From the NCBI RefSeq assembly GCF_036711975.1, contig NC_091970.1:2673501-2737500 (forward strand): a stretch of DNA of 64,000 nt, in the 5' to 3' direction. This document shows positions 14,601 to 17,600 of this stretch, piece after piece. This stretch comes from Onthophagus taurus (Eukaryota; Arthropoda; Insecta; Coleoptera; Scarabaeidae). The translations under genes were made by a program, and so were the position numbers. A model generated the notes under the pieces. It was not told where the DNA came from. It ran no database searches and saw only the letters and a list, made by a program, of their open reading frames with translations. The number at the start of each line of letters is the position of its first letter. Position 1 is the stretch's first letter.

Positions 14601-17600
14601 CACAATCATTTTATCCTCCAAAACCACTTTATCCTCCAAAACCATTTTATTCTCATTCTCCAAATCAATTTTATTCTCCACACCAACTTTAATCTCCGAA
14701 TCAACCTTACTCTCAGAATCAATTTTATCCTCCAACCTCATTTTATCCTCCACAACTATTTTATCGCCACAAATCTCTTTATTATCATCATCAATTTCGA
14801 CTTGATTCTTTTCCTCAACCAACTTAATCGACTCATTTTCGCTTTGGTTTTGACCCTCAACAATTTCTTTTTGTGCAACATCAATTAAACCATTTTGCTC
14901 ATCACTCGCCGACTCCAAAATTTTCTTCTCCACATTTTCTTCTTTATAATCACGATTTTTCTCCGAATTTTCACATCTATCTTGATTGGCTTCCGATTCT
15001 TTTATGACAGAACCTAAAATTAAATCATTTTTAAATTTCTCTGTTAATTCTGTTAGTTCTAGTAACTTTTTTATGTGAGTTTTTACCAAAAATTCGTTTT
15101 AAACTCATTTAAACATTTTTTGACAATTTAATTTGACGTTTTGCGAGCGCCATCTATGTGTGATTAATAAAAATAACCGAATTTTAATAACAAATCGCTT
15201 TAATTTAATTAAAATTTTAATTAATACGGTTTAACTTATTTTTATTATATTTTTATGATATCTTTATTTTATTTTAATTTGTATTAACTTTACAACGCGA
15301 TAATTTTGAATTACTTTTGATAATTATTGTCAAGTGTCATTCAACGTCAAATTTTTGGATATTTTTATTGAACTAAAAGCAGAACTCTACACTTAGAACT
15401 AGAATCACTCTAATTCTAAGTCTAGTATTAGTTCTAATGATGTGTGAAGTGCTACTGTTAGATAACTAGAACCAACATTAAACCTAAAACTAGAAACATT
15501 CAAAACATAACCTAAAACTAAATAATTTTTAAATTTCTCTGTTAATTCTGTTCGTTCTAGCATCTTTTTTATGTGTTTACTTTAACGTTAAAGTGATTAA
15601 ATACCAAGTACATACCAAAAATTTGTTTTAAAATCATAAAATTTTTTGACAATTTAATTTGACGTTTTGCGAGCGCCATCTATTTGCGATTAATAAAAAT
15701 AACCGAATTTTAATAACAAATCGCTTTAATTTAATTAAAATTTTAATTAATACGGTTTAACTTATTTTTATTATATTTTTATGATATCTTTATTTTATTT
15801 TAATTTGTATTAACTTTTACAACGCGATAATTTTGAATTCATTACGCATTAATATGAAATTGGTGAAACAACTTGTCAAGTGTCATTCAACGTCAAATTT
15901 TTGGATATTTTTATTGAACTAAAAGCAGAACTCTACACTTAGAACTAGAATCACTCTAATTCTAAGTCTAGTATTAGTTCTAATGATGTGTGAAGTGCTA
16001 CTGTTAGATAACTAGAACCAACATTAAACCTAAAACTAGAAACATTCAAAACATAACCTAAAACTAAATAATTTTTAAATTTCTCTGTTAATTCTGTTCG
16101 TTCTAGCATATTTTTTATGTGTTTACTTTAACGTTGAAGTGATTAAATACCAAGTACATACCAAAAATTTGTTTTAAAATCATAAAACTTTTTGACAATT
16201 AATTTAATTTGACGTTTTGCGAGCGCCATCTATAAGTGATTAATAAAAATAATCGAATTTTAATAACAAATCACTTTTATACAATTGAAATTTTAATTAA
16301 TACGGTTTAATTTAGTGTTATTATTTTATTTTTATGATAATTTCATTTTAATTTGTATTAGTTTTTACAACGCGATAATTTTGAATTTATTTAAGTGTCA
16401 TCATTCAACGTCAACTTTTTGAATATTTTTAATTATTTGTCTAGTATTAGTTCTAATAATAGTGTTAAATTAAATTATCTTTTAATAAATTTATGTCTCA
16501 CCTTCATTTTGAGTTTTTGATTCAACGTTTTCATCTTCCTTATTAATCGATTTTTTGTTGATTTCGCCACCATCTTTCGTACAAATCTCCATATGGCTCT
16601 TATTAATCTCCTTTTGGATGTCGTTGATCTCCTCCTCGATGATCCTCATCTCCTTCTCTTTAATTTCAATGTCTTTGTCGACGCTTTCCGCTTTTAAAGC
16701 GTCCTTAATCTTAATCGTTTTGATTTTTTGCCCGTCGATTTCCGTTTCTGATTCTGATGAACTCAAATATTCCTTATCTGAAGAGTTTGAAAATTTAAAT
16801 TTGTTCGTTGATGATGATTCCTTTTCGATTATTTCATCTTCCATTTCGTCGTCAGCCTCAGCTGAGGAATCTTCTTCGCATAATTTCTTTTTGGTTTTGT
16901 TGGTTTCTTCTTTTGGGGATTTTCTTCGATTTTCTTTACGCGTTTCTTTACGATTTTCTTTGTAATTCTCTTTATGATTTTCTTTATAACTTTCTTTATT
17001 ACTTTCCTTATTACTTTCCTTGTTAACTTCCTTATTATTTTCTCTATTATCATCTTTATTACTTTCCTTATTACCTTCTTTATTAATTTCTTTATAACCC
17101 TCTTTATTAATTTCTTTACAACTCTCCTTAAGATTTTCTTTACAATTCTCGTCGACGTTTTCTTTACAATTTTCTTTAACATTTACTTTACCACTTTCTT
17201 TATAATTTCCTCGATAATCATCTTTATAATTCTCTTCCTCATTTTCCTCAATTTCTTCATCAGACCGTTCTGAACCCATCGATTCCGACTCACTCTCCAT
17301 CTTCTCCTTCAATTTCCCTTTAAGTAATTCAGGCAGAGTTATTTGTTTCTTTGGAGGCGAATTTCTTCTTCGCCCTTTAACCCAACCCCGCTTTTTCTTC
17401 GACTTTTTAATTAATTTAGAAGGCGAATTCGATTTCAAAGTTTCCTTTTCAACACTACCACTTATTTCTTCATTATTTTCCTCTTTATTTTCTTCATTAT
17501 TTTCTTCATCCTCATTTTTTATTTCCTCCTTCTCCTCGTCGCATTTTAATTTCCTCTGTGCTAACCGCTTCATTTTTTCTTTAACCTCTCTTTTCGGTCG

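What the first reader, a model, noticed from the sequence alone, without database searches (positions are those of the whole stretch)
15008..16505. KAT6 exon 6 splice acceptor tandemly copied three times inside its own intron
The segment holding the real acceptor (exon starts 15013) and the first exon codons is repeated at about 15508 and 16051, next to the donor at 16501. Copies keep a TTTTAG acceptor-like end and open sequence just after it. The spliceosome on this transcript passes two near-identical decoys before the real site, so alternative or cryptic exons in a chromatin regulator are plausible. Copies 2 and 3 are almost identical, so at least one duplication is recent.
Basis: partly seen in the sequence, partly recalled or inferred. 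Interest (0 to 1): 0.72.

Follow-up and report, generated by a model that had tools for sequence, protein, structure and literature searches.

The report
Splice acceptor copied inside intron repeat
An intron of an animal KAT6 gene holds a three-unit repeat that carries two extra copies of the intron's own end signal; it looks like a by-product of repeat growth, of a kind already described in amphioxus, and nothing here shows that the extra signals are used.

Summary
On the minus strand, a KAT6-type gene has an inferred 1,488-nt intron (16501 to 15014), filled by about 2.7 tandem units (spacings 498 and 546). The segment at the real acceptor recurs at 15505-15575 and 16051-16121, 92% and 90% identical. 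Homology enters the exon for only about 7 bases (6 of 7 match), so "first exon codons" overstates it. The middle unit is a chimera: its 5' part matches the exon-side unit, its 3' part the donor-side unit (31 of 32 counted sites fit one switch). Unequal crossing-over from two units to three explains this best. The unit holds a MITE-like piece and a diverged monomer of a dispersed satellite. Such arrays are common: 8 in the window, about 12% of its bases. On a crude recalled matrix the copied acceptors outscore the real one, but five other AGs do too. Both copies lack the real site's CTAAC, and a frame entered there stops after 35 codons. Use as cryptic exons is possible but untested; no RNA or related species was available. 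Amphioxus "mirage" arrays (PMC3087553, passages) are the closest known kind.

The parts
11661..15013 (-). inferred 3' coding exon of KAT6 (long, low-complexity and Q-rich by eye)
   Evidence: ORF 11661-15098 minus, 1145 codons; 0 Pfam families at E 0.001; acceptor inferred
15014..16501 (-). inferred phase-1 GT-AG intron, 1,488 nt
   Evidence: joining keeps the frame ([10 protein letters not shown])
16502..18331 (-). KAT6 exon with the second half of the MYST domain
   Evidence: ORF 16491-18371 minus; MOZ_SAS profile positions 101-178, E 8.5e-20; acceptor TTGTTTAG|GTTATT read by eye from the sequence
16058..16501 (-). unit u1 (donor side), shortest and most diverged
15512..16057 (-). unit u2 (middle, 546 nt), chimera: u3-like 5' part, u1-like 3' part
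15014..15511 (-). unit u3, ends in the inferred real acceptor
16058..16121 (-). extra acceptor segment in u1, AG ending at 16058
15512..15575 (-). extra acceptor segment in u2, AG ending at 15512
15052..15056 (-). CTAAC branch-point-like motif of the real acceptor (branch A 15053, 39 nt from the AG); CGAAC at the same place in both copies
15610..15615 (-). GTATGT donor-like site in u2 (same in u1 at 16161; absent from u3)
15640..15685 (-). interval holding the switch in u2 (last u3-type sites 15685 and 15642, first u1-type site 15640)
15646..15879 (-). MITE-like piece of u2 (TTGACAA ... TTGTCAA), with a 72% relative beside an ABC-transporter-like exon 198 kb away
15948..16047 (-). diverged monomer of a dispersed satellite-like family (again at 15402-15501)

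Best explanation
This is an intronic tandem array whose repeat unit happens to include the intron's own 3' end, a 'mirage'-type array. An intron holding a MITE-like insert and a piece of dispersed satellite was first duplicated in tandem, with a breakpoint about 7 bases inside the next exon (inferred). The two units then diverged by about 7-11% (shown between u1 and u3). A later unequal crossover, or an equivalent conversion, between the two units, just past the shared ATAGATGGCGCTCGC block, made the chimeric middle unit (pattern shown, mechanism inferred). Splicing most likely still joins 16502 to 15013, with the copied acceptors as unused or rarely used passengers (inferred, not shown).
For: Three aligned units. 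u2 passes from u3-like to u1-like: 31 of 32 counted sites fit one switch, reached by 0 of 100,000 shuffles (the sites were typed in, two sites of other types and all columns before the well-aligned part were left out, among them one u1-type site at 15841 that goes against the pattern and 43 u3-type sites that go with it; shuffling treats sites as independent). Substitutions: u2/u3 5' part 6 of 402, u1/u2 3' part 3 of 137, against u1/u2 middle 15 of 192, u2/u3 3' part 9 of 103, u1/u3 middle 14 of 191 and 3' part 11 of 103. Both unit junctions read the same. In the genome search the 168-nt acceptor-side query met only the three units and, for its first 59 bases, one other place. Arrays with period 80 or more: 8 places in the window, 7,859 of 64,000 bases, and at least one in 8 of 9 further stretches. 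Published mirages in amphioxus have the same anatomy, and their authors' RT-PCR suggests regular splicing (PMC3087553, passages).
Against: The first duplication is only inferred: u1's 5' end aligns poorly and lacks several stretches present in u2 and u3. A stretch of some 20-30 bases of u2 (from AGTTGTTT) is missing from both u1 and u3, so separate later losses are needed. The exon homology is only 7 bases. One late u3-type site (15564) does not fit the single switch. No RNA, reads or related species were available, so regular splicing is an assumption, and the copies are not decayed at the AG.
Confidence: 0.82

Rival explanations
1. The copied acceptors are used: a poison or alternative exon runs from 16057 to the GTATGT donor-like site at 15615, or splicing ends at a copy, giving a KAT6 cut short before its C-terminal region.
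For: Copies score 2.63 against 1.54 for the real acceptor on a crude recalled matrix; TTG|GTATGT at 15615 ties with its u1 twin as the best donor-like site inside the intron (2.69; real donor 6.67); a phase-1 frame entered at each copy is open for 35 codons before a stop.
Against: CTAAC is absent at both copies (TTAAC remains); other AGs in the intron score nearly as high as the copies (2.61, 2.54, 2.44); the internal donor is far weaker than the real one; amphioxus mirages are reported not to disturb regular splicing (PMC3087553). The 35 open codons are the same in both copies because they are copies, so this is one observation.
Confidence: 0.12
2. Assembly error: the extra unit or units were made by the assembler.
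For: The 192-base perfect identity between u2 and u3 is a stretch that assemblers can mishandle.
Against: u1, u2 and u3 each carry differences and indels of their own; the assembly has 33 contigs, the longest seen 44 Mb, which suggests long reads (inferred); similar arrays lie in 8 of 9 further stretches.
Confidence: 0.05
3. The intron was created by a mobile element (an introner) that brought its own splice sites.
For: Repeat sequence runs from near the donor to the acceptor; a relative of the MITE-like piece lies just before an ABC-transporter-like exon, in the same orientation.
Against: The splice sites are not part of the shared piece: the acceptor end had no match elsewhere and one further locus with the piece was found. 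The tool warns that it skips very common words, so this is not proof of rarity.
Confidence: 0.04

Closest known systems
Amphioxus 'mirage' minisatellites (Adh3, globins BflGb6 and BflGb9; PMC3087553, passages read)
   Same: Tandem duplication of an intron/exon boundary; in BflGb6 the 3' end of an intron plus the start of the exon; many copies keep AG/GT signals; units at the cluster edge escape homogenisation; unequal or intra-strand crossover is suggested.
   Different: Unit about 500-546 bp instead of 10-160 bp; holds MITE-like and satellite-like pieces; exon part only about 7 bases; not amphioxus (organism not identified by any search; insect is my reading); splicing and length variation untested.
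Tandem-duplication route to novel intron positions in Drosophila genes (PMC2891723, abstract and outline seen)
   Same: Tandem duplication around splice signals.
   Different: There exonic sequence with a proto-splice site is duplicated and a copy becomes intronic; here nearly all of the duplicated sequence is intronic and no new intron is shown.
Introners (PMC9860276, search listing only)
   Same: Repeat material making up an intron.
   Different: No set of similar introns carrying the splice sites was found.

Membership tests
[quoted passage not shown]
   the exon part is thin, 6 of 7 bases (chance about 0.002).
Mirage-type array | repeat turnover by unequal crossover or homogenisation of inner units | tested here: met
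   Chimeric middle unit, 31 of 32 counted sites.
Mirage-type array | length variation between haplotypes or individuals | not testable with these tools
   One assembly only.
Mirage-type array | regular splicing preserved | not testable with these tools
   No RNA data.
KAT6 (MOZ/MORF/enok) | MYST domain with zinc finger, and double PHD, closest to KAT6 | tested here: met
   Best solved-structure hits are KAT6A for the MYST exon (5.5e-93; best KAT7 5.7e-78) and for the PHD exon (3.7e-22); Pfam MOZ_SAS, zf-MYST, PHD. That the exons belong to one gene is inferred from order, strand and frame.
Introner | many introns genome-wide sharing sequence up to both splice sites | tested here: not met
   Acceptor-side query: three units plus a 59-nt partial match. 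Donor end not searched on its own; the search is a lower bound.

The most novel reading that the evidence does not exclude
The array works as a splicing regulator: the copied acceptor at 16057 and the GTATGT donor-like site at 15615 define a poison exon that arose by unequal crossover and lowers or truncates KAT6, with unit number tuning its dose.
Probability: 0.05. Interest if true: 0.65.

Novelty: new member of a known kind. Interest (0 to 1): 0.24.

Why it matters
It is a clean single-locus example, outside amphioxus, of an intronic repeat that took its own splice acceptor along, with the crossover visible in the sequence. If the extra acceptors are used, it would show how repeat instability can change the dose of a chromatin regulator; if not, it is a natural test of how spliceosomes pass over near-identical upstream acceptors.

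Tried and rejected
The genome search with the whole intron reported 164 matches (40 of 909 candidates scored, list cut); apart from the locus itself the listed ones fall in the satellite-like and MITE-like parts and the sequence beside them, none in the acceptor segments. The pattern ATAGATGGCGCTCNCAA occurs 5 times: three in the array, one at the ABC-transporter-like locus, one on C10. In the 10 kb around the C10 site, matches to u2 at E 0.001 lie in its satellite-like part (query 14-187), none across the MITE-like piece.

The first BLAST run against L033 and L034 printed no hits, probably because of the gap costs given; it was rerun with defaults. A Pfam call failed on a wrong frame and was repeated with the right one. 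One paper search was rejected for a character; other searches followed.

Searches for another array of this kind, or a KAT6 case, outside amphioxus: none seen among the listed titles and abstract starts (one search showed 10 of 36 papers; the others showed all that they found). The library holds open-licence papers only, so absence from print is not claimed. One search (intron gain) showed 15 of 33.

Other in-frame AGs upstream of 15014 end at 15059, 15050 and 15041; the one at 15050 scores -0.28 and the other two are not among the 20 best, so 15014 is preferred, not proven. Two further CTAAC motifs lie in the intron (branch A 16004 and 15458), each after a copied acceptor and not before it. 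The splice frequencies are recalled and approximate.

Full report
What is there. The gene on the minus strand is a KAT6: its MYST exon is closest to KAT6A among solved structures (5.5e-93; best KAT7 5.7e-78), its double PHD exon likewise (3.7e-22), and Pfam finds MOZ_SAS, zf-MYST and PHD. One exon ends AATGAAG|GTGAGA (GT from 16501) and the next begins after TTTTAG at 15013; the frames join in phase 1. The exon number was not checked, and no call identifies the organism (insect is my reading). The neighbouring junction inside the MYST domain, fixed by homology, reads TTGTTTAG|GTTATT (sequence, read by eye), so TTTTAG|GTT is a normal form here. Without RNA the acceptor stays inferred; three other AGs (ending at 15059, 15050, 15041) are in frame too.

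The array. The intron consists of three head-to-tail units, in transcript order u1 (16501-16058), u2 (16057-15512) and u3 (15511-15014) (one search used limits a few bases different). The 71-nt acceptor segments of the copies are 92% and 90% identical to the real one. Homology goes about 7 bases into the exon, 6 of 7 alike, chance about 0.002.

How it arose. In the well-aligned intronic part of the three-way alignment, 32 substitutions can be typed as u3-like or u1-like; one switch explains 31, and 0 of 100,000 shuffles do as well. Two sites of other types (15687, 15684) were left out. So were all columns before 15814 was reached, where u1 aligns poorly: 43 u3-type sites, one u1-type site (15841) and one untyped. 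The switch lies between 15642 and 15640, just past the shared ATAGATGGCGCTCGC block. Substitutions are few on the two recent sides (6 of 402 between u2 and u3; 3 of 137 between u1 and u2) and more across them (u1/u2 middle 15 of 192; u2/u3 3' part 9 of 103; u1/u3 14 of 191 and 11 of 103). Unequal crossing-over between two older units gives this; gene conversion could as well. The earlier duplication is inferred. Against a simple story, u2 has some 20-30 bases, from AGTTGTTT, that u1 and u3 lack but the distant relative has.

What the unit is made of. About 234 bases of u2, bounded by TTGACAA and TTGTCAA, lie within a 282-column, 72% match to a place just before an exon on the same contig, 198 kb away. 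That exon reads as an ABC transporter by eye (no family search was made). 'MITE-like' is inference. Another 100 bases match, at roughly 70-80%, monomers of a dispersed family that forms arrays with a period of about 127 bp at one locus tested and 115 at another. The acceptor end matched nothing else except a 59-nt upstream piece.

Is it unusual here? With periods of 80 and more the window has 8 separate arrays (7,859 of 64,000 bases), and 8 of 9 further stretches have at least one. The 9 are not a random sample: four (L038-L041) were placed blindly, three of them with arrays; L037 is near a contig end; L033 and L034 were chosen for matches; L035 and L036 flank the window and overlap it by about 6.5 and 0.5 kb. 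An array that takes in a splice site is not very surprising in such a genome.

Are the copies used? On a crude recalled matrix the two copied acceptors are the best of 69 AGs and the real one is eighth, so the sequence at the AG does not tell them apart. CTAAC 39 nt before the real AG is CGAAC in both copies, while TTAAC stays in all three. In 20 codons before the AG, u2 and u3 differ by four amino acids and no silent change (u1 not compared), so nothing there suggests coding constraint. After a copy the frame stops at 35 codons. A poison exon from 16057 to 15615 can be drawn; no evidence available here tests it.

Comparison. [quoted passage not shown] The anatomy agrees; splicing and length variation could not be tested here. 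I file it as a new member of that known kind.

Noticed in passing
14226-14786: 18-nt repeats in the KAT6 exon after the acceptor, reading as KINVEN-like runs on the minus strand.
   Followed up: no
16894-17272: 12-nt repeats in the exon before the donor, reading as KESN-like runs on the minus strand.
   Followed up: no
780-2945: Tandem array of 387-bp units, 5.6 copies, 92% matches.
   Followed up: no
9818-10328 and 41377-42062: Two distant arrays whose units share the string GCCGAGGTCGCTTGCGGCCGAGGCA.
   Followed up: no
L034:4436-4712: A 72% relative of the MITE-like piece sits just before an ABC-transporter-like exon, in the same orientation to the gene as in KAT6.
   Followed up: partly
L041:650-10000: Satellite of 152-bp units, 61.6 copies, running to the end of the fetched stretch.
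   Followed up: no
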